Shown here piece by piece: positions 7,492 to 21,766 of a stretch of 64,000 bases of DNA; the stretch's first letter is position 1, and each line of letters begins with the position of its first letter. Where the stretch lies: positions 4,880 through 68,879 of the forward strand of contig JALVSY010000007.1 of assembly GCA_027036135.1 (NCBI GenBank), in the 5' to 3' direction. The position numbers and the translations under genes are program-made. A model generated the notes under the pieces. It was not told the DNA's origin. It saw only the letters and a list, made by a program, of their open reading frames with translations, and did no database searches. The stretch is from Pyrodictiaceae archaeon. Its GTDB lineage: Archaea; Thermoproteota; Thermoprotei_A; Sulfolobales; Pyrodictiaceae.

Positions 7492-7637
7492 CTTCTCAAG
7501 AGAGTAGAAAGTAGAATAAAACAGATAAAAGGAATAAAGACAAACAACCCATCGGAGAGAGTAACAATCTTACCCAGTTCTTTAGAGTGATGGGGCCCTA
7601 TGACCCCTGGAATAAGAGAGGTTGTGTAAGGACTTTG

Positions 7638-7916
7638 TTATTGTTTATATGCTTGTTTCCTTGTGCCAATGAAGTGCACTATTATGGTTCTTGAGCCCCA
7701 GTCCACCGTGTACACTACACGTATGTCTCCTATGCGGACACGAAAAGTATCTTCGAATCCTCTCAGCTTCTTTAGGTCATAGTCCCTAAAGGGCACCGGG
7801 TCCCTTGATAAGTACTCCAGTAGCTCTAGAATCCTATGCCTATAATGTGCTGGGAGACGCTCTAGGGCTTTAAGGGCTCGGCGCTTAACCTTCACACTGA
7901 AAACACTAGCGCTCAA
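7638..7916 (-). CDS. relE: RelE/ParE-superfamily toxin
   Basis: 92 aa, normal length for the family. It shows the RelE pattern: basic N-terminal strand (VFSVKVKRRA), two helices, DYDLKKLRG at about 45-53, then the beta core FRVRIGDIRVVYTVD and the C-terminal HFIGTRKQAYK. Archaeal RelE toxins cut mRNA on the ribosome. It lies 7 nt behind its antitoxin gene on the same strand and next to CRISPR array 2, which is read in the same direction. A decayed copy of the pair exists at 10176-10670. Confidence 0.88.
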   Translation of the reverse strand: MSASVFSVKVKRRALKALERLPAHYRHRILELLEYLSRDPVPFRDYDLKKLRGFEDTFRVRIGDIRVVYTVDWGSRTIIVHFIGTRKQAYKQ

Positions 7917-7923
7917 GCCCTAC

Positions 7924-8139
7924 TCATCCCTTGCTCTTCTCTAGTAGCCTCTTCTTAACCTCGTTCAGGTCCACTAGCTCATCCCTCATCCTTATAGCCT
8001 CGGCTTCGTCGGGAAGAGGCTCATCCTCCTCAACATGTCTCTCAATAATGAAGCGTAGCATCGACTCTAGCTTCTCAAGCCTCTCCTTAATCTCCCTAAT
8101 CTCTACTAGGATCTCAGAGCTGGACAAGAACGCAGCCAC
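7924..8139 (-). CDS. RelB-like antitoxin
   Basis: 71 aa. N-terminal helix with a heptad pattern (EIREIKERLEKLESMLRFI, residues 12-30) and an acidic C-terminal half ending in VKKRLLEKSKG that would wrap the toxin. Start is GTG at 8139: the decayed paralogue has GTG at the equivalent site and the two upstream regions are also similar (both contain TGAGACCGGG). Function is inferred from the toxin next to it. The 60 nt between its start and the last repeat of array 2 must hold its promoter. Confidence 0.8.
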   Translation of the reverse strand: MAAFLSSSEILVEIREIKERLEKLESMLRFIIERHVEEDEPLPDEAEAIRMRDELVDLNEVKKRLLEKSKG

Positions 8140-8199
8140 CTATTCCCAGGATCTCCCGGTCTCACCATATTGCCTAGCAATCTCCTAAAAAGAATGCCT

Positions 8200-8909
8200 C
8201 TTGTATTTCTCTTTTGAGTTCTAGAGAAAAACTTATTCCATCACAGGTACCATTGCAGAGCGTTATTAACTTGCATTTCTCTTTTGAGTTCTAGAGCTGG
8301 ACTCCCGGAGAGCAAGAAGAGTTGCTAAAACTCATCTTGCATTTCTCTTTTGAGTTCTAGTTACGGCCTACTGGATGCTGTCCGGCCCCAGTACGAGCGA
8401 TGGCTTGCATTTCTCTTTTGAGTTCTAGAACATGTTATCAAAGGAGCAGCTTATCCGAGACCTATTAGCATTTACCTTGCATTTCTCTTTTGAGTTCTAG
8501 TATGTTCTTTATTCTTGCCTTGTATCGTTTTCCTTCTCTAGGTCTTGCATTTCTCTTTTGAGTTCTAGCTAAAAAAGCTGGAAGAATACGCAAAGAAGCA
8601 CGGAATGTCTACTTGCATTTCTCTTTTGAGTTCTAGATTCTTCCATCGGGCATCCTTACTAGTTGTCTCTCCTCGTCTTGCATTTCTCTTTTGAGTTCTA
8701 GGCTGGTGTTCTAAGGTTTGCCTTGAGAATGAGAGGAGAACACGTAGCTTGCATTTCTCTTTTGAGTTCTAGTGGCTTATGACTAGGGCTCCATCATCCC
8801 TAATGTATACCCTGTCTTGCATTTCTCTTTTGAGTTCTAGCGTTGAACCAGGCCGGGTGCCGTGCCAACACCTCTGCTATGTCGCTTGCATTTCTCTTTT
8901 GAGTTCTAG
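8200..8909 (-). CRISPR. CRISPR array 2
   Basis: Eleven 25-nt repeats (plus-strand starts 8200, 8270, 8336, 8404, 8476, 8544, 8612, 8677, 8748, 8816, 8885) enclose ten spacers of 40-47 nt. In the transcribed direction the repeat is head CTAGA plus the core ACTCAAAAGAGAAATGCAAG. The copy at 8200-8224 has one substitution, as expected for the leader-distal repeat, so the array is read on the minus strand from a leader at its right side. Confidence 0.98.
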
Positions 8910-9125: not shown

Positions 9126-9322
9126 AAGGGACTAGGATGAATAAGTCATTAGATGGGGGAATAGTAGAGAAGATCAAGGTGTTATTACTTGCTTCTACCG
9201 CTAGGCCATAAGCGTCTACAGAGGTGTGAATTCTCTCCTTGCATTATAGTATTTGTTTTTACGAGTATTTTTGCTTAATAATATCGGGGATTTTTCCCCG
9301 AGTAGGGTTCTCGGTGACAACT

Positions 9323-9463
9323 ATGTCTGTTTCTCTGAGGGATCTACTTGCTAGGCTTAGGACGGCTGCTAGGCTAGCTGAGAAGGTGAGTAAGGATAAT
9401 CTCGAGCTCTTCGCGGAGGAGGCGCTCCGCCTAGTCTCGAGAGGATATATGGGATGCTGCTGA
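9323..9463 (+). pseudogene. PaREP1-like gene, N-terminal fragment
   Basis: Open frame of 46 codons from ATG 9323 (LRDLLARLRTAARLAEK, then EEALRLVSRGY) that stops in TGA. Reading on in the next frame gives WDAAEKAWVAL, the typical continuation of PaREP1-like helical proteins, and after a second shift the chain goes on as KALLGLILATRG in the frame of 9454-9840. Two one-base indels, near 9450 and near 9483, therefore split one original gene of roughly 170 codons. Confidence 0.55.
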
Positions 9464-9840
9464 GAAGGCTTGGGTTGCCCTACAAGGCCCTATTGGGCCT
9501 AATACTGGCTACCCGCGGGATCCTGCTCATAGAGGAGAGGATAAGGAGGACATGGGAGCAGAGGGGCCCGGAGAAGGCGGAAAAGGAGCTAGAGTGGTGG
9601 ATCCAGACAGGCTTCCTAGCGCCCTCGGCTAGGCAAAAGCTAGAGGAGGTAGCGCGCCTCGCCGCGGAGGCGGTGAACGATAAGGAGATTTACCAGGGAC
9701 TGGCCGAGGCAATACTGCTCCACCTATGGTTCTACCACGGCCCCGACACTGTCCCCTTGACCGAGGAAGGCGCGAAAGAGAGGGTACTGGAGCTAATAGA
9801 CTGGATAAGGAAGAAAGCCAGGCAACACCAGCTACCCTAA
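9454..9840 (+). CDS. PaREP1-like helical protein, main part of a frameshifted gene
   Basis: 128 codons, all-helical and rich in Glu/Arg/Trp, with the PaREP1-like stretch YKALLGLILATRGILLIEER and the later AEAILLHLWFYHGPDTVPL. It overlaps the previous fragment by 10 nt. If translated alone from ATG 9454, residues 1-9 would be out of family register. Role unknown: PaREP1 proteins are widespread in Crenarchaea, and their helical core has been compared with HEPN folds. It is the only coding region between the leaders of arrays 2 and 3. Confidence 0.55.
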   Translation: MLLRRLGLPYKALLGLILATRGILLIEERIRRTWEQRGPEKAEKELEWWIQTGFLAPSARQKLEEVARLAAEAVNDKEIYQGLAEAILLHLWFYHGPDTVPLTEEGAKERVLELIDWIRKKARQHQLP

Positions 9841-10175
9841 TCCCAGGGGCCTAGGTATTCAACTAGTTATCTCAAAGGCCCTAGGCACGTTATACGTGAG
9901 ATGAAAGGGGAGACCGGAGGAGGAAATAACCAAAGCAGAGAGGAAGAATAGCCCTCCGTATCCCTCCCTTATCCGATAATAACCAAATTAATGATAGCGC
10001 TAGCAAGCACGAATAGAGAGACAAAATCGCGTTCATTCCCTAAGCTCTGGCCTATCCGGCACATACAAGGCCTAGTACGCTTACACCACCACTACAAAGA
10101 GACCGGGGAGCACTTGGTTCTCTTTAGGGAATATTCGAGATAATATAGATGAGACCGGGGGATCCAGAGGGAAGG
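9841..10175. other. Gene-free spacer before the decayed TA pair
   Basis: No convincing reading frame. The last 40 nt (TGAGACCGGG and surroundings) are similar to the region just upstream of the intact antitoxin at 8139, so the duplication that produced the second TA copy includes part of the promoter. Confidence 0.5.
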
Positions 10176-10382
10176 GTGACTGCTTTCTTGTCTAGCTCCG
10201 AGACCCGGGCAGAGACGGAGATTAAGAAGGGACCTAAGAAGCTGGAGACCATGCTGCGCCTCATTATTGAGAGACACGTTGGGGGAGATAGGCCCCTCCC
10301 CGACGAGGCCGAGGCCATAAGGACGAGCGACGAGATAGTGGACTTGGACGAGGTTAAGAAGAGCCTGCTAGAGAGAAGCTAG
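10176..10382 (+). CDS. RelB-like antitoxin, paralogue of 7924-8139
   Basis: 68 codons from GTG 10176 (VTAFLSSSETRAETEIKK), closely similar to the intact antitoxin along its whole length, including IIERHV, PLPDEAEAIR and DEVKKSLLE. Small in-frame changes shorten the first helix. The frame is still open although the toxin behind it is destroyed. Orientation is opposite to the first copy. Confidence 0.6.
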   Translation: MTAFLSSSETRAETEIKKGPKKLETMLRLIIERHVGGDRPLPDEAEAIRTSDEIVDLDEVKKSLLERS

Positions 10383-10398
10383 GGATGAGAAGGGCTCA

Positions 10399-10670
10399 AG
10401 ACCCCTAGCGTTTTCAGCGTAAAGATTAGGCGACGAGCCCCTAGAGCACCTCCTAGCACATTATAGGCTCCGGGTCCTAGAGCTACTAGAGCACTTATCA
10501 ACGGATCCAGCGCCTCTCAGAGACTACGACACAAATGGAGCCAAGAGGATTCGAAGACACCTTCGACATCCACGTAGGAGACATATATGTAAGATACATG
10601 GTAGACTAGGGCTCTAGACCAATAACAATATGCCTCACAAAATACAAGGGGTACACATATAACCCATAAT
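10399..10670 (+). pseudogene. RelE toxin pseudogene
   Basis: Clear DNA-level similarity to the intact toxin at 7638-7916: VFSVKIRRRAP at the start, then deletions that shift the frame, ESKTPS/FEDTF-like remains and a TAG replacing the Trp codon of YTVDWGS (near 10606-10612). No toxin can be made. Confidence 0.85.
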
Positions 10671-10782
10671 GCAGCCCATATACCGCCCTTCCTGCTTTAG
10701 CCGCGACGTCCCTCATTGCTCTAATCACTATTCTCTCTGATTACTTGTTTGCCTTGTTTGTCTTAACCTTTAAACTCCTCTT

Positions 10783-10976
10783 TCTTTTCCCTTGGGAACA
10801 CTTCGTGAGCGGAGTTGAATGCTTCCTTGGGAACAACGTTTCGAATCCATTCAAACCCATGGGAACACCTTGGATGGTCTCGGAGCACCAGATGCACGGG
10901 AATTAGACCCGTTCCGACAAACATAAATAATAGGGTCATACCAGTTATTATTCGGATCCAAAAGGAAACCATACCA
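10783..10976 (+). promoter_or_regulatory. Leader of CRISPR array 3
   Basis: Holds CTTGGGAACA at 10791-10800 and 10826-10835 and CATGGGAACA near 10858, with the same spacing and interposed sequence as the leader of array 2 read on the minus strand. The homologous block covers about 10783-10870. A TATA-like ATAAATAATA lies at about 10923-10932, some 50 nt before the first repeat. Repeated motifs of this kind in archaeal leaders are candidate sites for adaptation proteins or a Csa3-type regulator. Confidence 0.8.
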
Positions 10977-11618
10977 GCTTAACTCAATAGAGAATTGTAA
11001 GTGTGCCTCCCTGTTACTGATGCCCAGCTCCCTCGCGGCCTCGTGCTTAACTCAATAGAGAATTGTAAGCTAGTCTCTTAGCGAGCCACTCGGGCAGATT
11101 CTCTAGCCTTGCTTAACTCAATAGAGAATTGTAAGTCTTTATTAGTCCCATCATTGCGAGCTCAAACGTCTTCTGAACCACGCTTAACTCAATAGAGAAT
11201 TGTAAGAGTGAAGACTGGCAGGTGGCCATCTGATTACGAGAAACTGGCTTAACTCAATAGAGAATTGTAAGCTGGGAGGAGCTGGCGTGTAATACTCTGG
11301 GTTGCCTGGGTACTTAGCTTAACTCAATAGAGAATTGTAAGTTCCTCGCTAACTATCTCTCCAAGCTCCGTCACAACATAGTGACACAATACTCAAAAGA
11401 GAATTGTAAGTTCCAGCTCAGCCATTGCTAGCTTCATTTCTAGTCTCGCGTCTTACAATACTCAAAAGAGAATTGTAAGACATATAACTAGTGGTACCCT
11501 ATTAGCCGCACCACCACTAGTGAGCACAATACTCAAAAGAGAATTGTAAGATGGAACCAATAGGGCCGACCTCTTTGACAATGTGCAGATACAACAATAC
11601 TCAAAAGAGAATTGTAAG
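10977..11618 (+). CRISPR. CRISPR array 3, two repeat types in tandem
   Basis: Ten 25-nt repeats and nine spacers of 40-46 nt. The six leader-proximal repeats (10977, 11045, 11111, 11182, 11247, 11317) are head GCTTA plus core ACTCAATAGAGAATTGTAAG. The four distal repeats (11386, 11455, 11526, 11594) are head ACAAT plus ACTCAAAAGAGAATTGTAAG. The change is abrupt: there is no intermediate. In the distal type ACAAT can pair with ATTGT and CTC with GAG, giving a longer stem than in the proximal type. Confidence 0.98.
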
Positions 11619-12154
11619 AGAGGTGAAATGTGACTGGGTGTGTAATTGCTTTATTGCTCTTAGGCGTAAGGAAAAGAGTGTTGTGATGGGTCTGGGTATG
11701 GTTGCTGTTTTGTAATAGTAGTGTTAGTGTCGTTAAGGGCGCGTTCTCGTTGCGCCAAATGTGTGTGCCCGTAACTGGGTTGATGAGTTTTGGGCCGAGC
11801 TAGCTCTGATGGGGTTTCTTTTGAGTGCTAGGTTTCTGGCTCATTGTATTGTTACATGTATGGTTTACGCTATATTGTGTGGCGTATAGGAGTCTTGCTG
11901 CTATAGGCTAGAAATAGCTCTGCTAATGGTGTAGGGGCGTTATAGTTCTTTTGTCTGCGAGGAGTAGTGGAGAGCGCATAGCCCGTGTAAAATGGGGGGG
12001 CGCCGGGACTCTCCGGGGCAGGCGATACAGGGCATGTTGCATTGAAGTGGATCTGCCCGAGCGTGTTGCGGGGTGTGCCAAGGCCTGCAGAGTGGTCGTT
12101 AACAAGGGAGCACGGGGGAATAATCCCTTGAGCTGGTCTAGGGGCAGAGAGGGA
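11619..12154. other. Gene-free region after array 3
   Basis: No reading frame with plausible composition was accepted. The first half is GT-rich. At 11815-11831 TTTCTTTTGAGTGCTAG resembles the minus-strand form of the array 2 repeat with a 2-nt deletion and one change, possibly a solitary relic. The GC-rich second half (11980-12140) is not recognised. Confidence 0.4.
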
Positions 12155-12361
12155 CTAAGCCCTTGCAGCTGCTTTGGCCTCTACTAGTAGTTTTTCGAGC
12201 CGTTTCTTGGCCTCCTCGAAGCCTAGTTTACCTGTTCTCCATTCCTCGTAGACCCGCCAAGCCTCTTTCCCGTGGCCAGTGTCCTCGGCTTCCCCGACAA
12301 GGTATAGTAGCTCTCCGGCCTGGTTTCGTAACCTTCTCCACTCCTTGTAGAGCTTACCCAT
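12155..12361 (-). CDS. Small helical protein behind the PIN gene
   Basis: 68 codons from ATG 12361, chosen because it overlaps the stop of the PIN gene in ATGGGTAA, a normal translational coupling. The product is highly charged and helical (KLYKEWRRLRNQAGELLYLV at the start, FEEAKKRLEKLLVEAKAAARA at the end). No family recognised. Its position, coupled to a PIN protein, would fit a binding partner or antitoxin, which is inference from context only. Confidence 0.6.
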   Translation of the reverse strand: MGKLYKEWRRLRNQAGELLYLVGEAEDTGHGKEAWRVYEEWRTGKLGFEEAKKRLEKLLVEAKAAARA

Positions 12362-12800
12362 TCTCGGGGCACCCCGTATACTGGTTGACGTAGAGTAGGC
12401 CATATTCCTTCGCTCTCCTAGCAATAAACCTATCAACGGCGATTATTCCATCACAGTCCAGTCGTAACGCGGCGAGAACATGCATGAGGTCAAGGGTTCT
12501 TCGGGGACTCCAGCCATGGTTCCTTATAAGTAGTCTTGCGCGGCGATTAATCCTCGAGACCACGTGATTGAAGAACTCAGCTACATCCACGCCTAGTTCC
12601 TCCAATAGCCTAGTTACTGCTTCCCTGGTCTCCCTTCTCCAGTTCTCGAGCCAGTGAATACCGCTAATAATACACCAATGTCTAGAACAGCACTCCCTGA
12701 GCAATTCCCCAGCCTCAGCATCCTCCAAGGCACGTATCAGTATACTTGTATTGAGGTAGAAGCATAGTGCTCTCTGCTGTGTTGGCACCGTAGCGCCCAC
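12354..12800 (-). CDS. PIN-domain protein with altered first acidic residue
   Basis: 148 aa. The C-terminal half has PIN features (TLDLMHVLAALRL, then GIIAVDRFIARRAKEYGL with Asp in VDRF). The N-terminal strand reads FYLNTSILI, with Asn where VapC proteins have the first metal-binding Asp. The activity may be lost, or the protein may bind RNA without cutting. Coupled by 8-nt overlap to the small gene downstream. Starts at ATG 12800 or a few codons later. Confidence 0.65.
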   Translation of the reverse strand: MGATVPTQQRALCFYLNTSILIRALEDAEAGELLRECCSRHWCIISGIHWLENWRRETREAVTRLLEELGVDVAEFFNHVVSRINRRARLLIRNHGWSPRRTLDLMHVLAALRLDCDGIIAVDRFIARRAKEYGLLYVNQYTGCPENG

Positions 12801-12930
12801 TTGGCAGCTTATGCTACATACCTATTTAAATCAAGTACATAATTACTATAACTATATGATATAGGTAAGAGAAAAAGGAGCCTAAAGGAAAAAGGATGTA
12901 TTCAAGAGATGATTATAAGGTTTATGGATC

Positions 12931-13083
12931 GTGCTTGGCGGCTATGCTAGTTTCTACGATAGGCCCTGTAAAGAACTGCTAAGCGGTGAACTGCCCCTCT
13001 TCTGCCTAGGGTTTTTGCTCTTCCTGCTCCATGGGCTGGTAGTGTTTACTGTATACTACGTGGCTCCCTCGGGTGGTTTGTGA
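12931..13083 (+). CDS. Small membrane protein (50 aa)
   Basis: Frame from GTG 12931, with one hydrophobic segment in the second half (LFCLGFLLFLLHGLVVFTVYY) followed by a TGA placed directly before the ATG of the next gene. A stop lies upstream in frame at 12916, so no longer form is possible. Supported only by hydrophobic pattern and tight spacing. Confidence 0.4.
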   Translation: MLGGYASFYDRPCKELLSGELPLFCLGFLLFLLHGLVVFTVYYVAPSGGL

Positions 13084-13455
13084 ATGAGGGTTTGTAGGCT
13101 TACTGTTGGGATTAATGCTGCTGTAACACTATTTATTGGGCTAGGGTTGCTCGGGTACTATGGCTTGGCTAGTGCTCTTAAGGTTCTCTTTGTCTCTTTG
13201 TTCCCTTTCTCGCTTGTTTTTGGCTCTTTTACGCTCCTCAAGCTGGTCTGTGTCCCGGCTCTCTCTGCCACCTGTCTTCTCTCTGAGCGCTGGTGTAGGG
13301 GGCTGCGCCTAGTGCTCCTATTGTATATTATTGGTCTCCTAGGGTGGCTCCCTGGCGCCTTCTCTAGCGGAGTAGCGGGTGCCTTGGTACTAGGCCTCAT
13401 TGTCACGGGCTTGGCTGCTGCGAGTGCTTGGTGCCTACGCGGCACCAGGAGGTGA
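13084..13455 (+). CDS. Polytopic membrane protein
   Basis: 123 aa with about four hydrophobic helices (residues 8-28, 30-58, 75-92, 96-117), a short Arg-rich tail (CLRGTRR) and several Cys. No family recognised. Starts at ATG directly behind the 50-aa membrane ORF, so the two are probably one unit. Confidence 0.55.
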   Translation: MRVCRLTVGINAAVTLFIGLGLLGYYGLASALKVLFVSLFPFSLVFGSFTLLKLVCVPALSATCLLSERWCRGLRLVLLLYIIGLLGWLPGAFSSGVAGALVLGLIVTGLAAASAWCLRGTRR

Positions 13456-13485
13456 GGAGATAGCATTGTTAGGGCTCTCCCTTGG

Positions 13486-13782
13486 CTATAGTTCTAGCGG
13501 GTTTAGTGACGTTATGATTATGCATACTTGTCTCGGGTTCGTCGTGCACTGCTCCGCCTTGGCTAGTAGTTCCTCGGGTAGCCCCGGTATCGTTGCCCCA
13601 GCCATGGTTGGTGCTCGTGGACTACTGTAGCGTATCTCTCGCCGCGTCCCGGGCCGTAGGTGCACAGTGTGGGGTCTTAGCACTAGCTTCCTCTTGGCCG
13701 AGTAATGCTTCGCGCCGAGGACCTCTAGTAGTGTTCCAAGCACCTCTAGGCCTACCCCTGTCGGCTCGCCCTTCTCGAGCAA
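13486..13782 (-). pseudogene. Downstream part of a gene split by two in-frame stops
   Basis: From TTG 13782 this frame codes for 98 residues, but it is open upstream to 13926 with no start codon, and it is the same frame as the 207-aa gene at 13933-14556. The two are separated only by TAG GAG TAG. The continuous reading contains FLFPIPLGALRKALKGEPDE and, later, GLPEELLAKAEQ. Either one ancestral protein of about 355 residues has been cut by nonsense mutations, or a second protein begins at a non-standard codon behind the GGAGGT at about 13912-13917. No family recognised. Confidence 0.5.
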
Positions 13783-13932
13783 TATGTCGTAGGCAGTGGG
13801 GCTTGCTAGCCATCGCTGGCCTAGGAGAAGCCTCTGCCTCTCATCCGGCTCGCCTTTGAGTGCCTTCCTTAGCGCGCCCAGGGGTATGGGGAATAGGAAG
13901 GGCGTGGCTCCCCTACCTCCTCTCGGCTACTC

Positions 13933-14556
13933 CTACTCGGGTTGCGCGATGCATGGCCCCGTCTCGGATAGGTACACTAATACGTCGTCAACGTTGATCA
14001 TGCCGGGGTGCTCCAGGTACTCGTCGAATACCCGGAGCCCCTCCTCGGGCCCATACGCCTCCACTAGCAGGTCTAGTACCTCGCTCATGCCCTCCCCGGG
14101 GTCTAGGCACTTCTCTTCTCCGCGTGTCTTCTCCTCGAGGCTCTTGCCGCTGAGCAGCAGCGAGGCAGCGTCGAGGCCAGCTACTATGGCCTCCCTTATC
14201 CTGCTCGCCGCCTGGGTCACACCTACCTGGTCACGGAGGAGCCCAGGCTCTACACAAGTCTCTACAAGTACTCTGGCCTTCTCTCCACCGCTCACCATCT
14301 CCCCGGCTACCCTAGCCCCGGGTCTCTCGGCGCGGATGAGCAGCCTAGCCGCCTCGGCGCCGCCTATGACTGCCTCGATCTCCGCGCAGGCAAGGGGCCC
14401 CTGTGTCTTAGTGCTTCTGAGGACTAGTTTCTCGAGCACTAGTGGCCGTGGGAGCCTCTTCTCCCTAGCCACCGAGGCTATTGCGAGCAGGGTTGCCTCC
14501 AAGAGCTCTCCGCTACGGGTCTTCTCCAAGACTGGCACCGCCTCCACTGTTATCAA
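13933..14556 (-). CDS. Hypothetical protein, possibly truncated by TAG codons
   Basis: 207 aa, mixed alpha/beta, no transmembrane segment. Beta-rich first half (MITVEAVPVLEKT, LEKLVLRSTKTQGPLACAEIEAVIGG) and helical second half ending VFDEYLEHPGMINVDDVLVYLSE. Not recognised. The reading frame continues past the stop through TAG GAG TAG into another 145 codons. TATA-like AATATATAAG sequence lies just upstream (about 14565-14575 on the minus strand). Confidence 0.6.
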   Translation of the reverse strand: MITVEAVPVLEKTRSGELLEATLLAIASVAREKRLPRPLVLEKLVLRSTKTQGPLACAEIEAVIGGAEAARLLIRAERPGARVAGEMVSGGEKARVLVETCVEPGLLRDQVGVTQAASRIREAIVAGLDAASLLLSGKSLEEKTRGEEKCLDPGEGMSEVLDLLVEAYGPEEGLRVFDEYLEHPGMINVDDVLVYLSETGPCIAQPE

Positions 14557-14980
14557 CTAATAAGGGAAATATATAAGATTTATTGAAACCATATATCGAG
14601 CTAGACTAGGCGAGCCGAGCTAGGCGGCCCGGCCAAAACAAGAAACAAGGAAACAAAACACAAATAACACAATAAATAAGAAAATAGGCCGAGCATAAGA
14701 AGCAGATGAAAAAGAAGGCATAAAACATAGCATAGGTTCAAGAAACACTCCACTTAGCAAAACTAATCCCTAAGACATCCTAGGCAACCCCCGGGGCCAG
14801 AGAATTAGGAACTCCATTGCTGCCTCCTTACACGAACTAGTAGCTATGCCTAAGAAGATACATGGCTCGGCGACATAGCGGCTACCTAGCACCTATCATT
14901 GCAATGCTCGACACGGGCTCGAGATAACAAAATGGCCCCAAGGTGCAAGCCCCCTTTACACCAAGCCTCGTGAACCCGTT
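14557..14980. other. A-rich gene-free region
   Basis: 14580-14750 is markedly A-rich on the plus strand, with AAACAAGGAAACAAAACAC-like tracts and no gene. Read on the minus strand these are long T/C tracts of the kind that end archaeal transcripts. Nothing else recognised. Confidence 0.45.
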
Positions 14981-15405
14981 CTAGGGCCTCACGGGTACGC
15001 CCAGCTGCTTGGCTTTACGCCTTAGTCTCTGATCGAAGGTTGCGAGTACTGCATTGTGCTGAATAGCTGTCGCGAGTATGATAGCGTCGTTAAGCTCTCT
15101 GGGCTGCATGTACCCTTTCTCCAATAGGCCCGGCGCCTTATTAATAACACCTAGTGGCTCCGCAACGTATCTTGTGCGTGAATCCTCTAGGTACTCATTT
15201 ATCTTGGCTGCAACGAAGCTGGCCGGAACCCGTAGCTTGCGTACCATTACCCACATGTACTCGTGCAGCACTATTGGTATAATCAATACATCTCTAGCAG
15301 AGTCTATGAGGTCAGCGGGTTCCACAGTGAGGACCAGTCCTCAACAGTCTCGTAGACAAGTATATTCGCGTCAGGGAGCAGTGGCCTCTTCGAGAAACTC
15401 TTCAA
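14981..15405 (-). pseudogene. VapC (PIN) toxin broken by a frameshift
   Basis: The N-terminal part reads KSFSKRPLLPDANILVYETV from TTG 15405, including the catalytic Asp, and then runs into a stop. The remaining 114 codons are in another frame from about 15325: EPADLIDSARDVLIIPIVLHEYMW, then LNDAIILATAIQHNAVLATFD and the C-terminal RRKAKQLGV. Joined, they form a VapC of normal length (about 140 aa). One indel near 15325-15335 breaks it. The TTG start overlaps the antitoxin gene. Confidence 0.8.
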
Positions 15406-15520
15406 CTGCATCCTCTATTTCCTCGACCGATATGCTCCTGCCGAGCCTTATAGTTAGCCTCCTACAATGCCTAGGGGTGATCTTAATAGCGCTCTCACAA
15501 TAATCTGGTGTATCAGTCAT
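15371..15520 (-). CDS. VapB-like antitoxin
   Basis: 49 codons from ATG 15520 to TGA 15371: a basic beta-like segment ITPRHCRRLTIRLGRSI followed by an acidic helix VEEIEDAVEEFLEEATAP. The end overlaps the start of the broken VapC gene, the usual VapBC arrangement. The frame is intact although the toxin is not. Confidence 0.7.
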   Translation of the reverse strand: MTDTPDYCESAIKITPRHCRRLTIRLGRSISVEEIEDAVEEFLEEATAP

Positions 15521-15814
15521 GTTTTTCCCTCTGATCTGGTTCCTGTTTTCGCGGAGGCGAAGCCGTTATTGATAATTATTTATCTAGAGATATCTCTCAG
15601 CTTGATAATAGTGCTGTTGTTCTTACCGCGTATCGGTTTCTTCTCCCAGCCTATTTACTTGCTTAACTATTTGTTATTTAAAGCTGAAAGACCCGACATT
15701 AGTAACGCTAGAGCCCCGTCTATGTCGTAGCTCGTATAGTTAATGCGAATGGCTAGGGTTTGTTGAAGCCTCGGGCCCTCAACATATTATCGTAAATGTT
15801 CTTGCTAAGGTACT

Positions 15815-16366
15815 TTGGGGTACCGGGCTGTGCCTGGCCACGGCTTCGTATTCGTTAGTAGCGGCCTTGACTCCGTTGTGCTGGTTTTGGCTGGCATAGT
15901 GCTAGTGTTTGCCGGGATTGACGCTGCCAGGATTGTTGCGGGCTTTATGCTCGGGGTAGTGCTGGCGATCATGTTCTACGTGGCTGGGTCGGGCTTTGGC
16001 GTTGTTGCGGCACTGTTGCTTGGGTTCATGGGCTTCATTATCGGCCTTGCTATGGGGTTCATGGTGCTCCGGGTAGCGGTATCACTTGTGGGCGGGTTCC
16101 TCCTAGCAGACATCCTTGTAAACCTGCTCCCTGCTAGGCATCTCGGTGGCTTAGCAGTCCTCGTCCTAGGCGTTGTTCTCGCAGCTGTGCTATACGTTGT
16201 AGCTGAGTACGTGATAGCGGCCGCCGTCGTGGCCACCGGCTCGGTAATAACCTATGCTGGGCTCACTTACTGGTTCCCTATAAGCATTGCCGCTCTAGCA
16301 GCCCTAGCTCTCTTCGTTGCTGGCCTGGTTCATAACTGGTCGAGGATCAGGGCTGGAAAGGACTAG
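15815..16366 (+). CDS. Polytopic membrane protein
   Basis: 183 aa, nearly all hydrophobic, with about seven helices rich in Gly/Ala/Val and a final HNWSRIRAGKD tail. The Gly-rich helices (FGVVAALLLGFMGFIIGLAMG) recall small archaeal membrane proteins of the DUF4203-like type, but this is only a resemblance. Start either TTG 15815 or GTG 15830. Stands alone. Confidence 0.6.
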   Translation: MGYRAVPGHGFVFVSSGLDSVVLVLAGIVLVFAGIDAARIVAGFMLGVVLAIMFYVAGSGFGVVAALLLGFMGFIIGLAMGFMVLRVAVSLVGGFLLADILVNLLPARHLGGLAVLVLGVVLAAVLYVVAEYVIAAAVVATGSVITYAGLTYWFPISIAALAALALFVAGLVHNWSRIRAGKD

Positions 16367-16476
16367 AGAGTAGTAAGGGGGTCACTTGTTTCGAGAACTA
16401 GGCGTATTTGCGGAAAATGCTATACTGTATGGAGGCCGAGGTATTAATCGTAGTTATCGCTATTGCCTAGTGTGGC

Positions 16477-16887
16477 TTATCGCTTATCACTCTTATGCCT
16501 ATCCTCGCTACTAGGTCCTTCTTGTTTATTATTGTCTTTGTCAAATGTAGCGAAGTACTTTGCTCCTAGTAGCTTGCTTGCCGTTATGTGTAGTAGGTCT
16601 AGTGTTCGGAGCCTTAGCTCGGCTGAGAGCCGGAAGGCAAGTGACAACGCGTCGTTGAAGTCCACCTCGGCTAGTTCTACCCCTGCTTCCTCGATAGAGT
16701 AGAGTGCGAGGGCTAGGGGATTCTCTAGCCCTGCTCTCGAGTACACTGATGCTAGCTCAACTAGCGCCAGTCTTGATGTTACTAGTTTTTCTCCCCGGAG
16801 GCTTTGGATTAGCTTAACTGCTCTACTATGATTAGCGTCAGCCTCGTCCATGTAGGATACCACGATGTTCGTATCTATGTAGATCAA
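16477..16887 (-). CDS. vapC: VapC toxin (PIN ribonuclease)
   Basis: 136 aa with the PIN acidic residues in place: IYIDTNIVV (Asp5), the central ALVELASV (Glu near 43), TLDLLHITAS (Asp near 96) and YFATFDKD (Asp near 115). The last 20 residues are a charged tail. Overlaps the antitoxin gene by 4 nt (ATGA-type coupling). Predicted Mg-dependent endoribonuclease. Appears intact. Confidence 0.9.
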   Translation of the reverse strand: MIYIDTNIVVSYMDEADANHSRAVKLIQSLRGEKLVTSRLALVELASVYSRAGLENPLALALYSIEEAGVELAEVDFNDALSLAFRLSAELRLRTLDLLHITASKLLGAKYFATFDKDNNKQEGPSSEDRHKSDKR

Positions 16888-17135
16888 CGCGACCGCTCCT
16901 CCTCAAGGAGCTTGGTGAGTCCACCGTGCCTTATCCGGTACCCCTTCTTCTTGTACTCCTCTGTTTTCCGGTACACCTCTTCCCAGAACATTACCTCTCT
17001 CCGCACACTCTCTAGCCCCTTCTCGATCATTATGTTGAATGCGTGCGACCTACTCCTAGCTATGCCGTACCTAACCATCTTGTCCGCTAGCTCCACTAGC
17101 TCTCTCCTAACCTTGATAGACACAGTAACCGACAA
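16884..17135 (-). CDS. vapB: VapB antitoxin, ribbon-helix-helix
   Basis: 83 aa. Residues 1-40 form a CopG/Arc-type ribbon-helix-helix (VTVSIKVRRELVELADKMV, then SRSHAFNIMIEKGL), and the rest is a charged toxin-binding tail. Start TTG at 17135, the first start available just downstream of the promoter region. Expected to bind VapC and repress its own promoter. Confidence 0.87.
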   Translation of the reverse strand: MSVTVSIKVRRELVELADKMVRYGIARSRSHAFNIMIEKGLESVRREVMFWEEVYRKTEEYKKKGYRIRHGGLTKLLEEERSR

Positions 17136-17291
17136 TCCTAGATACCCTGGTAGATCTGGGTATACCTAGGTACACTATATGGTTCATCTAAACGGAGGTC
17201 TTGTACCTTGGAGTTCACAGGAGTAAATGAGTGAGCAGAAGCGGGACCTTAGGGGCTCCTTGCAAATGTACAAGGGTGGGTTCTTGTTGTG

Positions 17292-17597
17292 CTATATTGT
17301 TTCTAGGCCGAAGTCTCTTAGCACCTTGCTTAGTCTCCTAAGCTCTCTTAGCAGGGTTTGTCCCTTCTCTGTCAGCCTGTAGCCCCTCTGTTCATCGTTT
17401 GCCTGCTCTATTATTCCTCTTTGCTCTAGCTTTGCTAGTATTGGTGCTAGGCGGTTGTAGGCCATGTTGGTGTAGAGTGCTATGCGTGTGGGTGGCTGGC
17501 CTGGGTGCTTGTTTATCGCCTCTAGTATGTCTATGAGTATCTCTATCCTTGTTCTCCGGGGCAACCTGGGGCTATCCTCGCCTAGTTGTCGCTGCAT
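17292..17597 (-). CDS. Winged-helix transcription regulator
   Basis: 101 aa, a single winged helix of the archaeal HTH_45 kind: ILEAINKHPGQPPTRIALYT, recognition helix NRLAPILAKLEQRGII, wing YRLTEKGQTLL. Last gene of a run with three membrane or exported proteins, overlapping the membrane gene upstream by 26 nt, so it may control that unit. Confidence 0.78.
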   Translation of the reverse strand: MQRQLGEDSPRLPRRTRIEILIDILEAINKHPGQPPTRIALYTNMAYNRLAPILAKLEQRGIIEQANDEQRGYRLTEKGQTLLRELRRLSKVLRDFGLETI

Positions 17598-18120
17598 AAT
17601 GAGCTGCGAGGAGTGAGGCCGTGGTTGCTCTCAGTAGCTCCGCTACGAGTAGGAGTGTTGCACCCACGGGCTTGGTTGTTGTGAGGACCCCTACCGCTCT
17701 CAGAGCGAAGGCCGCGCCTATGATGCCTACGAGCCACCTAGCGGGTCCCTGGAACTCCTTGGAGGCGTAAGCAGCAGTTGCAGCCGCCGCTAAGTCGAAG
17801 CCAGCTGGTATGGCCACCAGGGTTACCGTGTAGAGCCCGTGTCTCTTGCCTGGGAGGGCTAGTAGCAGGAAGCCTGCTGCCGCGAAGCTAGCTGTCGCTG
17901 TGTAGGCCGTGTAGGCTAGCCTCGGGTCGCTGAGCAGCATTAGTGGCGTCCAGGCATGGCTCATGGCTAGTAGTAGGAACCCTGCCACGTACTCCGGCCT
18001 AGTCGCGCCCAGCCTCGCCAGCTTCGCGAGCAACACGGCTATATAGGCGAAGGCGGCTAGGCCCACAACGCTCGTGGCCAGTAATACTGCCTGGTAGGCT
18101 AGTGCCAGCTCCCCGGCCAA
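17572..18120 (-). CDS. Polytopic membrane protein, about seven helices
   Basis: About 182 aa from TTG 18120. A longer frame reaches ATG 18186, but it would overlap the preceding gene by 49 nt, so the later start is preferred. Seven Ala/Leu-rich helices, with a conserved-looking HAWTPLMLLSDPRLAY loop after helix 3. No family assigned. Grouped with two exported proteins upstream and a winged-helix regulator downstream. Confidence 0.6.
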   Translation of the reverse strand: MAGELALAYQAVLLATSVVGLAAFAYIAVLLAKLARLGATRPEYVAGFLLLAMSHAWTPLMLLSDPRLAYTAYTATASFAAAGFLLLALPGKRHGLYTVTLVAIPAGFDLAAAATAAYASKEFQGPARWLVGIIGAAFALRAVGVLTTTKPVGATLLLVAELLRATTASLLAAHYAATTRRG

Positions 18121-18137
18121 GACCCCTGGTCCCCTGC

Positions 18138-18635
18138 TTAGCGATGAGGCGGCCAATGGCGAGGGGACAAGACATGATGATGACAAGGCCTGATTACTAC
18201 GAGCCTCTCATCCACCCGGATAACACGCGGCTTAACAACCAGGCCATGCGGTGTCCAGAAGACATGCCCGATGACCACAACGTGTTTTCCGAGTAGCTTC
18301 TCCGCGACGAGCCATAGGGGGAGAGGCTTACCGCCTACAAGCACGCAGCGGGGGAGAACAACGATTACTCTCTCCCCGTGAGCCCCCTTCATTATTACCC
18401 CGTGGGGGAAGGCGGCAACAACTACTCCGCTAACGCCGCGGAAGCCCCGGTAATAATGGCTATGACGAAGCGCCTCAACGAAGAGCGGAGCACCCTGGGG
18501 CTTCTCCCCGGCAACATTGTTGCCCGTTAGCACTCCTCTCGGTATTCCTCTAGGGTACATCGAGTAAGCTAGTAATGGTCCAGCAACAGCGACTAATAGC
18601 ACAGCGACTAGTAGTGCTAGCCTAGTAGGGCCCAT
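18138..18635 (-). CDS. Exported hypothetical protein with His-rich tail
   Basis: 165 aa. Residues 1-23 are a signal peptide or membrane anchor (RLALLVAVLLVAVAGPLLAY). The rest has a small beta-barrel look: repeated strands GVVVAAFPHGVIMKGAHGERVIVVLP and HVVVIGHVFWTPHGLVV. The end PCHHHVLSPRHWPPHR is rich in His and could bind metal. Not recognised. Neighbour at 18735 is also exported and His-rich. Confidence 0.6.
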   Translation of the reverse strand: MGPTRLALLVAVLLVAVAGPLLAYSMYPRGIPRGVLTGNNVAGEKPQGAPLFVEALRHSHYYRGFRGVSGVVVAAFPHGVIMKGAHGERVIVVLPRCVLVGGKPLPLWLVAEKLLGKHVVVIGHVFWTPHGLVVKPRVIRVDERLVVIRPCHHHVLSPRHWPPHR

Positions 18636-18734
18636 ACTTAATCCCGGTCTATTCTACAGGATGGAGGTAGGCGCGTAATCCTAGGAGTAAAAACATGGTT
18701 AGGGCTGGGTATCTGGCTCTTGGTGTGCCCGGGC

Positions 18735-19238
18735 TTAGCCTTGGCTCCAGACCGTGGTCTCGTGCTCAACTATCTTCACTACCTTGTTGTTGACTAGGTC
18801 CACCACTACCAGTGCTGCTCCGTGTGTGTCCCCGCTCTTCTCCCTCAGCACAACTATCGCCTTGACGGCGTGGAGCGTCACTGTACCGTCGCCCTCAACA
18901 ACGCCCTGTATCACCGGCTTTATCAAGGTAACGTTGTAGCCCTCTTTGAGCAGCGCGGCGGTACGGTTATCGCTCATAAGTATCTCTAGCACGTGGTGTC
19001 TAAACTCGTCGCTCAGCACTAGGCGTGGAGCATGATGCTTTACCCAGGGCCCGTGCCTCGGTGGATGAGCTATAGGGCAGTGGTGCCAAGGCCCGGGGCG
19101 GTGATGCATGGGGGCCATTGGCGCCCAGTTATCTGCTGCTCTTCCCTGGTGCATCGTCGTTGTGTACGCGTATGCTGCTACCCCGAGAGCAACTAGCGCG
19201 GCCACAGCTATTGCTACGAGGAGTACGTGCCTCTCCAT
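18735..19238 (-). CDS. Exported His/Pro-rich protein
   Basis: 167 aa. Membrane anchor at residues 5-27, then a His/Pro/Met-rich linker (PMHHRPGPWHHC, HPPRHGPWVKHH) that looks suited to copper or nickel binding, then a C-terminal domain with strands VTLHAVKAIVVLREK and AALVVVDLVNNKVVKIVEHE. That strand pattern is like a PepSY fold, but this is not firm. Same orientation as 18138-18635, probably the start of the same operon. Confidence 0.6.
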   Translation of the reverse strand: MERHVLLVAIAVAALVALGVAAYAYTTTMHQGRAADNWAPMAPMHHRPGPWHHCPIAHPPRHGPWVKHHAPRLVLSDEFRHHVLEILMSDNRTAALLKEGYNVTLIKPVIQGVVEGDGTVTLHAVKAIVVLREKSGDTHGAALVVVDLVNNKVVKIVEHETTVWSQG

Positions 19239-19340
19239 GTGTGCTCACCTTTCTGCCTTGGGTCGTGTGTACTATGTGTTAGCGCGGCTATAAGCCGGGG
19301 ACTCACTAGTGGTGCGCAAAGAATAAAACCGGGCCTCTTA

Positions 19341-20105: not shown

Positions 20106-21392
20106 TTACTTGGTGGATTCCCTGGGAGTGCTTAGTGTGTCCTGGTTGTCTTCTTTGCTTAGTTTTTCCCTGGCCCGGGCTACTAGGTCGCTTATGTCCC
20201 ATACTTGTAGCCATGTCTCTGGCACAATGGTTTTATCCGGTACTATGAGGATTTTCTCCGCCTCTGGGAACCTCGCTAGCTTAGCCTCTATCCTCTTCAC
20301 ATCGCTCGTGCTTAGCCTGTTTACCCACTTGACCTCGGCGACTACCCGGAGGGACCGGTACTCGACAAGCGCTACGTCTATCTCAGGGCTCTCTATCCTT
20401 ACTGGCCTGAGCCCATAGTACTCTGAGAGGAAGCGCTCAACGAATCTCTCAACGAGCCTCGGTATCAGCGTCTGTAATGCTTTCTCGATGTAGCCCCATG
20501 GTAGCGGTGCCTCGCCGAACCCGTAGCGGGCCTCCAGGTAGTATATTGTCTCCGTGAGCGGCGAGACGTGGCGGTATATGCTCCTGCGCTTCTTCCCAAG
20601 GGTCTCTATGCGCTCCAGGAGCCCGGTCTCAACCATGGCCTTGACGTACTTTGTTATGAGGGACGTGGCTGGCTTCTCGAGCAAGCCCCGGGAGTACAGG
20701 TAGCTGGCTATCTCTGTGAGCTTCGTCTTCCCAGCCGCTATAGCCTCGAGTACTGCGTCGAAGCGCCTCGTATAGGTATAGTCCTCCTCGTCCAATACCT
20801 CGCCGACCAGGGTGTGTGCAAGCTCCCTGCCATATAGTACTATGTCGCGTATACCTCTCCCTATTAGGACGGGCTCCTGGTAATAGACGAGGTGCTCTAC
20901 TAGCTCCCTGCCCTCCAGTCCCCAGCCCCGGGTCGCTAACAGCTCCAAGGGGGAGAGGAGCCCAACTCTCTCGCTGAGGAAGAGCCCGGTGAGAGGAGCC
21001 TCTGGGCCCTCCACGAAGACGCGGTAATAATGGAGAGTAGAGGTTATGAAGACAAGGTTCTCGCCACAAACGCCTGCCTGGACCGCGTCGAAGAGACGGG
21101 GATTAGCCCGGTGAAACTCGTCAAGGATAACCCTATCAGTGTGCCTACATACGCGGATAAAGGCACTAGTGTCAAGCTCTTCGTCGTTTACCGGGTCATA
21201 TATTGTTCCGCCCTTGCGCACAATGAAGTACTCGTAGTTCCCCAATACGTGCCTAGCATAGAATGTCTTCCCAGTCTTCCTCCGGCCATAGAGGAGGCGC
21301 CGACCACTAGTTAGGAGGAAGCGTCGGAGACTAGGCCTCTCAACAATGATACTCACAGTATCATACCCAGAGTATGATTCTGTAAAACTCAT
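20106..21392 (-). CDS. Archaeal P-loop ATPase with PD-(D/E)xK-like C-terminus
   Basis: 428 aa of the AAA_14/DUF234 archaeal ATPase type. Walker A GRRKTGKT at about 36-43, Walker B RVILDEFHR near 87-95. Middle winged-helix region (ITKYVKAMVETGLLERIE), then a C-terminal domain with EIDVALVEYRSLRVVAEVKW, the ID...(E)xK layout of a restriction-endonuclease fold. These ATPases are common mobile or accessory genes in archaea, with unproven roles. Followed upstream by the ArsR-type gene at 21440 on the same strand. Confidence 0.82.
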   Translation of the reverse strand: MSFTESYSGYDTVSIIVERPSLRRFLLTSGRRLLYGRRKTGKTFYARHVLGNYEYFIVRKGGTIYDPVNDEELDTSAFIRVCRHTDRVILDEFHRANPRLFDAVQAGVCGENLVFITSTLHYYRVFVEGPEAPLTGLFLSERVGLLSPLELLATRGWGLEGRELVEHLVYYQEPVLIGRGIRDIVLYGRELAHTLVGEVLDEEDYTYTRRFDAVLEAIAAGKTKLTEIASYLYSRGLLEKPATSLITKYVKAMVETGLLERIETLGKKRRSIYRHVSPLTETIYYLEARYGFGEAPLPWGYIEKALQTLIPRLVERFVERFLSEYYGLRPVRIESPEIDVALVEYRSLRVVAEVKWVNRLSTSDVKRIEAKLARFPEAEKILIVPDKTIVPETWLQVWDISDLVARAREKLSKEDNQDTLSTPRESTK

Positions 21393-21439
21393 CCTCTTTT
21401 AGTCCTTATCGCCTAAGACGAGCTAAGAACGACTCAAGA

Positions 21440-21766
21440 CTAGTCAAGGGCACCTAGACGCTCATCGCTACTCTCTAGTAGTTTTTTGAAGAATTCTGGG
21501 CTGAGGCATATCCTGAACTCTCTGGTACGGCATAGCCTTTTGACTATGAAACGCTCCTCGTCGATAACAGCCCTATCCTCTATTAGGCCAACGTTCCGGA
21601 GTATCTTTAGGTGAGCTAGTAGCAGGGGCTTCGAGATCCCCAGGGCCTCTCTGAGTTCTCGCCTAGTCATCTCCTTCTCTGCACAAAGGGCTAGTATCTT
21701 TAGCCTTGTTGGATGAGCCATGGCGCTAAGTATTTTAGAGAGCCGCGTCCATACATCGTCGCCCAA
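21440..21766 (-). CDS. ArsR-type winged-helix regulator
   Basis: 108 aa: SKILSAMAHPTRLKILALCA, recognition helix ALGISKPLLLAHLKILRNVGL, wing VIDEERFIVKRL. This is the standard ArsR/HTH_20 fold. No Cys pair of metal-sensing ArsR is seen. Target unknown. 50 nt behind the small membrane protein gene. Confidence 0.83.
   Translation of the reverse strand: MGDDVWTRLSKILSAMAHPTRLKILALCAEKEMTRRELREALGISKPLLLAHLKILRNVGLIEDRAVIDEERFIVKRLCRTREFRICLSPEFFKKLLESSDERLGALD

What the first reader, a model, noticed from the sequence alone, without database searches (positions are those of the whole stretch)
10977..11618. CRISPR array 3 switches repeat type part-way
Six leader-proximal repeats (GCTTA head, ACTCAATAG core) are followed without transition by four distal ones (ACAAT head, ACTCAAAAG core). 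The distal type can form an ACAAT/ATTGT stem that the proximal type cannot. This points to fusion of two arrays, or to a replaced leader-proximal repeat that was then copied with each new spacer.
Basis: seen in the sequence. Interest (0 to 1): 0.72.

Follow-up and report, generated by a model that had tools for sequence, protein, structure and literature searches.

The report
CRISPR array with swapped repeat type
A CRISPR array in a heat-loving archaeon changes repeat sequence part-way, most likely because DNA exchange with another CRISPR array replaced the repeat next to its leader and every later spacer copied the new version; sister arrays and related species show the same kind of switch, so it is a real but largely explained feature.

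Summary
Six GCTTAACTCAATAGAGAATTGTAAG repeats (10977-11341) are followed abruptly by four ACAATACTCAAAAGAGAATTGTAAG repeats (11386-11618). They differ at positions 1, 3, 4, 5 and 12 of 25. Spacer lengths are normal throughout.

It is not unique. In this Pyrodictiaceae genome and its relatives, repeats have a near-constant core and 3' handle but a hypervariable 5-nt head: mean entropy 1.23 bits at positions 1-5 against 0.15 at 6-25. Many arrays switch head part-way, including four in a single-contig relative. Older blocks often carry a head found elsewhere in the same genome.

A related genome holds a syntenic locus. Window 9307-10785 matches it at 96% but inverted; identity then drops to 84% at 10786, inside the leader. 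In that relative, the leaders of two head-to-head arrays are 98% alike over the last 200 nt, and one has switched from GACATA/CAAATA to the other's GCTTAA type.

Best reading: recombination or gene conversion at the leader end replaced the first repeat, and later acquisitions copied it. Fusion inside the array is the main rival. Assembly error is unlikely. The principle is known; frequent switching of a hypervariable head is a new variant of it. Interest is moderate.

The parts
10977..11341 (+). Six leader-proximal repeats GCTTAACTCAATAGAGAATTGTAAG with five spacers
11342..11385 (+). Spacer at the junction of the two repeat types, 44 nt, normal length
11386..11618 (+). Four leader-distal repeats ACAATACTCAAAAGAGAATTGTAAG with three spacers
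10786..10976 (+). Leader segment next to the first repeat; 84% identical to the relative's leader A whereas everything up to 10785 is 96%; L010-like in its middle part, i.e. a mosaic
9307..10785 (.). Cassette between the two head-to-head arrays plus upstream part of the leader; 96% identical to, but inverted in, the relative's contig (G058:C237); includes a PaREP1-like ORF 9454-9840
8200..8909 (-). Array 1, head-to-head with array 3; 11 repeats of the second family (CTAGAACTCAAAAGAGAAATGCAAG on the minus strand), leader to its right
12821..19328 (.). Right flank, shared in the same orientation with relatives G058 (88%, from 12968) and G002, in both of which it begins right behind an array
11619..12820 (.). 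1.2 kb between the end of array 3 and the conserved flank, with no counterpart at that site in the relatives; holds a weak PIN-domain ORF (12354-12800, minus)

Best explanation
Array 3 records a replacement of its first repeat. An older array with ACAAT-type repeats had its leader end recombined (gene conversion or crossover over the roughly 200-nt leader and the start of the first repeat) with another CRISPR array of the same leader family, which brought in a GCTTA-type first repeat with T at position 12. Because Cas1-Cas2 duplicates the leader-proximal repeat at each spacer insertion (established knowledge), the next five acquisitions all copied the new type, giving six proximal repeats of one kind over four old ones. 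The head (positions 1-5) tolerates such swaps because the shared core and 3' handle carry the conserved part of the repeat. Shown: the switch, the leader mosaicism, the identity break at 10785, and the same switching in sister arrays and relatives. Inferred: gene conversion as the event, its donor, and neutrality of the head.
For: Head positions 1-5 vary far more than positions 6-25 across 24 blocks (1.23 vs 0.15 bits). Other arrays switch blocks the same way: G000 L009 GCAATAx2 > GCTTAAx2 > CAAATA > GCTTAA; G004 (one contig) L047 CTCTAAx19 > GATAAAx3 > CTCTAA, L048 CCATAAx8 > GCTAAAx2, L052 GATAAAx14 > GTCTAA, L053 CTCTAAx10 > CTAGAA. In G004, three of four older heads are the main head of another array in that genome. 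Most switches change 2-5 head bases at once with no intermediate. Relative G058: array B at the syntenic site reads GCTTAAx4 > CAAATA > GACATAx2 > GCTTAA (degenerate); its leader is 98% identical over 200 nt to that of neighbour array A, which is GCTTAA throughout apart from its degenerate last repeat and also holds array 3's exact proximal repeat. Relative G002 keeps GACATA x11 at that site. Identity between window and G058 breaks at 10785 (54 mismatches of 1486 columns before, 31 of 192 after; Fisher p 4e-10; 0 of 500 permutations). Core base T12 is shared by array 3's proximal block and own array L010, whose leader is among the two most similar to array 3's in this genome.
Against: No donor with the same leader tract and the same 25-nt repeat was found in the fetched parts of this genome; L010 has the leader similarity and T12 but a GACATA head. 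In G004, L047 and L050 have 98% identical leaders but different tips and heads, so leader body and head do not always move together. A permutation test for heads being shared within rather than between genomes was not significant (7 of 12 against 4.1 expected, p 0.14). No spacers are shared between genomes, so the order of events cannot be read from spacers.
Confidence: 0.57

Rival explanations
1. Fusion of two arrays: a crossover inside repeats, for instance an inversion between the two head-to-head arrays, joined the leader and up to six units of one array to the distal units of another.
For: Window 9307-10785 lies inverted in G058 relative to the shared right flank. The G058 array attached to that cassette (A) holds array 3's exact proximal repeat, while the right flank sits behind a different array (B) in G058 and G002. 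Repeats 6 and 7 share their last 13 nt, so a crossover there would leave no scar.
Against: G058 array B and others show switching over single units, which a block fusion does not predict. The G058 leaders are near-identical inverted repeats, so its cassette orientation could be an assembly choice. The left side of the window is a different array and 1.2 kb of unrelated DNA separates array 3 from the flank, so no simple reciprocal product is seen.
Confidence: 0.28
2. Ordinary mutation of the leader-proximal repeat in steps, with the intermediate units lost by deletion.
For: Repeat variants copied as stretches are known (PMC2886076). Heads in the family form a network of single steps (e.g. GCTTA/GATTA, GCAAT/ACAAT), and G058 array A shows one- and two-base steps.
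Against: Most switches change 2-5 head bases at once (five repeat positions here) with no intermediates in the arrays, and heads recur in several arrays of one genome.
Confidence: 0.09
3. Assembly join of two separate arrays in a 40-contig draft genome.
For: Several contigs of this assembly start or end in CRISPR arrays and one array holds a gap of Ns.
Against: The longest exact match between the two halves is 17 nt, too short for usual assembly k-mers; the junction spacer and spacing are normal; the same switching occurs in the single-contig genome G004.
Confidence: 0.04

Closest known systems
Stretches of repeat variants in CRISPR arrays (Touchon and Rocha 2010, PMC2886076; CRISPRDetect, PMC4869251)
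   Same: Consecutive repeats share a variant because each new repeat is copied from the one next to it at the leader end
   Different: Here several bases of a 5-nt head change together, and recurrently, in many arrays of one family
Recombination between CRISPR loci in Sulfolobus (review PMC4390879)
   Same: Repeat-spacer regions are reported to recombine between loci of one cell in a crenarchaeon
   Different: That review calls the repeat generally invariant within a locus; here it often is not, and the exchange seems to centre on the leader end
Degenerate terminal repeats (PMC4466440, PMC2886076)
   Same: Deviating repeats at the leader-distal end
   Different: The four distal repeats here are identical to each other and intact, not decayed

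Membership tests
CRISPR array (25-nt crenarchaeal repeats) | Regular near-identical repeats with unique spacers of similar length | tested here: met
   ten repeats, spacing 65-71; no whole spacer shared between arrays
CRISPR array (25-nt crenarchaeal repeats) | Conserved leader on one side | tested here: met
   leader family of 14 arrays ending ACCA/ACCT before the first repeat
CRISPR array (25-nt crenarchaeal repeats) | cas genes in the genome | tested here: met
   Csx1 and APE2256-type genes in the window; one Cas1, Csa1, Cas4 and Cmr genes on contig C40
Copied repeat variant (leader-proximal duplication) | Variant forms an unbroken run from the leader | tested here: met
Fusion of two arrays | The two halves occur as separate arrays in relatives | tested here: inconclusive
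   leader-side cassette and right flank go with different arrays in G058, but spacers are not shared and orientation there may be an assembly choice
Both halves processed by one Cas6 | Cleavage and handle of both repeat types by one enzyme | not testable with these tools
   The last 13 nt are identical; the cas6 model TIGR01877 finds nothing in G000, G004 or G058, so the processing enzyme was not identified

The most novel reading that the evidence does not exclude
In Pyrodictiaceae the first five bases of the CRISPR repeat act as an exchangeable, rapidly diversifying tag of each array, moved between arrays together with the leader tip, so that arrays keep distinct leader-repeat junctions under a single adaptation module.
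Probability: 0.12. Interest if true: 0.65.

Novelty: new variant of a known kind. Interest (0 to 1): 0.4.

Why it matters
Repeats are usually treated as fixed for a locus and are used to assign arrays to Cas systems and orientation. Here the repeat's 5' part is a fast-moving marker that orders events within an array and traces exchange between arrays. It also makes a testable point: which bases of the first repeat Cas1-Cas2 and the processing nuclease ignore.

Tried and rejected
Hairpin as the meaning of the switch: hairpin heads are not confined to old blocks, and block size does not differ. Head-sharing within genomes as statistical proof of exchange: permutation p 0.14, so used only as support. 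Head derived from leader bases by shifted integration: considered, but leader tips (ACCA) do not match heads and repeat 3' ends stay intact. GACATA to ACAATA by a one-base insertion: preceding bases of the four distal repeats are not constantly G. Spacer sharing between genomes to order events: none found, only 17-18 nt partial matches. Array 3 against the phage collection: no match. The large repeat-mutation survey (Mitrofanov et al., microLife uqaf050) is not held.

Full report
What is there. Array 3 holds ten 25-nt repeats at 10977-11618. The first six are GCTTAACTCAATAGAGAATTGTAAG and the last four ACAATACTCAAAAGAGAATTGTAAG, without intermediates and with even spacing. The two types differ at positions 1, 3, 4, 5 and 12. 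The leader lies on the left and ends ACCATACCA, as in other arrays of the same leader family.

Setting in the genome. The window lies on a 1.24-Mb contig of a 40-contig, 99.6% complete genome. A relative placed in the same genus is titled Pyrodictiaceae archaeon in its public record. The genome has at least ten further arrays or array remnants of two repeat families, one ending GAATTGTAAG and the other GAAATGCAAG. Within each family the heads differ between arrays while the rest is nearly constant: GCTTAA, ACAATA, GCAATA, CAAATA and GACATA in the first; CTAGAA, CCTTAA, CCATAA and GATTAA in the second. Over 24 repeat blocks from four genomes the mean entropy is 1.23 bits at positions 1-5 and 0.15 at positions 6-25. 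Only one Cas1 gene was found, on contig C40 with Csa1, Cas4 and a type III-B Cmr set. The window carries two CARF-type genes beside the arrays.

Switching is common. Besides array 3, own array L009 reads GCAATAx2, GCTTAAx2, CAAATA, GCTTAA from the leader. In G004, a single-contig genome of the same genus, four of seven arrays switch: CTCTAAx19 to GATAAAx3 to CTCTAA; CCATAAx8 to GCTAAAx2; GATAAAx14 to GTCTAA; CTCTAAx10 to CTAGAA. In three of these four the older head is the main head of another G004 array. A label-shuffling test over all genomes was not significant (p 0.14), so this is supporting evidence only.

The syntenic locus in relatives. In G058 (contig JALVYZ010000237) the right flank of array 3 is found in the same orientation (88%), while the cassette between the two head-to-head arrays, window 9307-10785, is found inverted at 96%. 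The cassette is thus more alike than the flank and may be mobile. G058 has array A on one side (GCTTAA heads; its tenth repeat is identical to array 3's proximal type) and array B on the other (GCTTAAx4, CAAATA, GACATAx2, GCTTAA-like). In G002 the array next to the same flank is GACATA throughout. So at this site an older GACATA array was overlaid in G058 by the head of its neighbour, and the leaders of A and B are 98% identical over the last 200 nt but unrelated upstream. This is a worked example, in a sister lineage, of a leader end with its first repeat being replaced and the new repeat then copied.

The leader of array 3 itself. Alignment of the window to G058 leader A shows 54 mismatches in 1486 columns up to 10785 and 31 in 192 beyond it (Fisher p 4e-10; no permutation of 500 as strong). 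The break lies inside the leader, 191 nt before the first repeat, so leader ends have been exchanged since the two lineages parted. In its middle part array 3's leader resembles that of own array L010, which also shares the rarer T at repeat position 12, but L010 has a GACATA head. No perfect donor was found. In G004, L047 and L050 have 98% identical leaders but different tips and heads (CAAACCA|CTCTAA against CATACCT|GCTAAA, the latter as in L051), so exchange tracts can be short.

Interpretation. The best-supported account is recombination or gene conversion at the leader end, followed by copying of the new first repeat into five further acquisitions. A crossover inside the array (fusion), possibly by inversion between the head-to-head arrays, is the main rival; the inverted cassette speaks for it, but the near-identical inverted leaders in G058 make its orientation there less certain, and 1.2 kb of unrelated DNA separates array 3 from the flank. 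Stepwise mutation is less likely, as most switches change two to five head bases at once. A mis-join is unlikely: the halves share at most 17 identical bases, and the same pattern occurs in a single-contig genome.

What is known. Copying of repeat variants during acquisition is established (PMC2886076; also stated in PMC4869251), and recombination between CRISPR loci is reported for Sulfolobus (PMC4390879). The same review describes repeats as generally invariant within a locus. The hypervariable head with frequent block switching is therefore an unusual variant of a known process; I found no paper describing it in this family, though one relevant survey was not held.

Noticed in passing
window 9307-10785: Cassette between head-to-head arrays is 96-97% identical to a relative while the flanking region is 88%, and inverted; it may be a mobile unit (PaREP1-like ORF, toxin-antitoxin-like pieces).
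   Followed up: partly
window 7682-8194 and 10118-10625: Inverted 76% duplicate on the outer side of array 1 and upstream of array 3's leader.
   Followed up: no
L078+L079 (G058:C237) 20895-21578 and 7549-8064: Two arrays of the relative carry a changed 5' handle (ACTGAAAG instead of ATTGTAAG) in their newer repeats; positions 19 and 22 of the repeat change together across the family.
   Followed up: partly
window 11002-11044; L012 about 1015-1053: The newest spacer of array 3 and the second spacer of another array share 17 identical bases on opposite strands, as if both targeted the same gene.
   Followed up: no
G000, G004, G058 genomes: The cas6 model TIGR01877 finds nothing although arrays look active; the processing nuclease may be divergent.
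   Followed up: no
L013 about 785-960, L015 about 15600-15796: Decayed array ends hold mixed remnants of several repeat types, including a repeat with one extra base.
   Followed up: no
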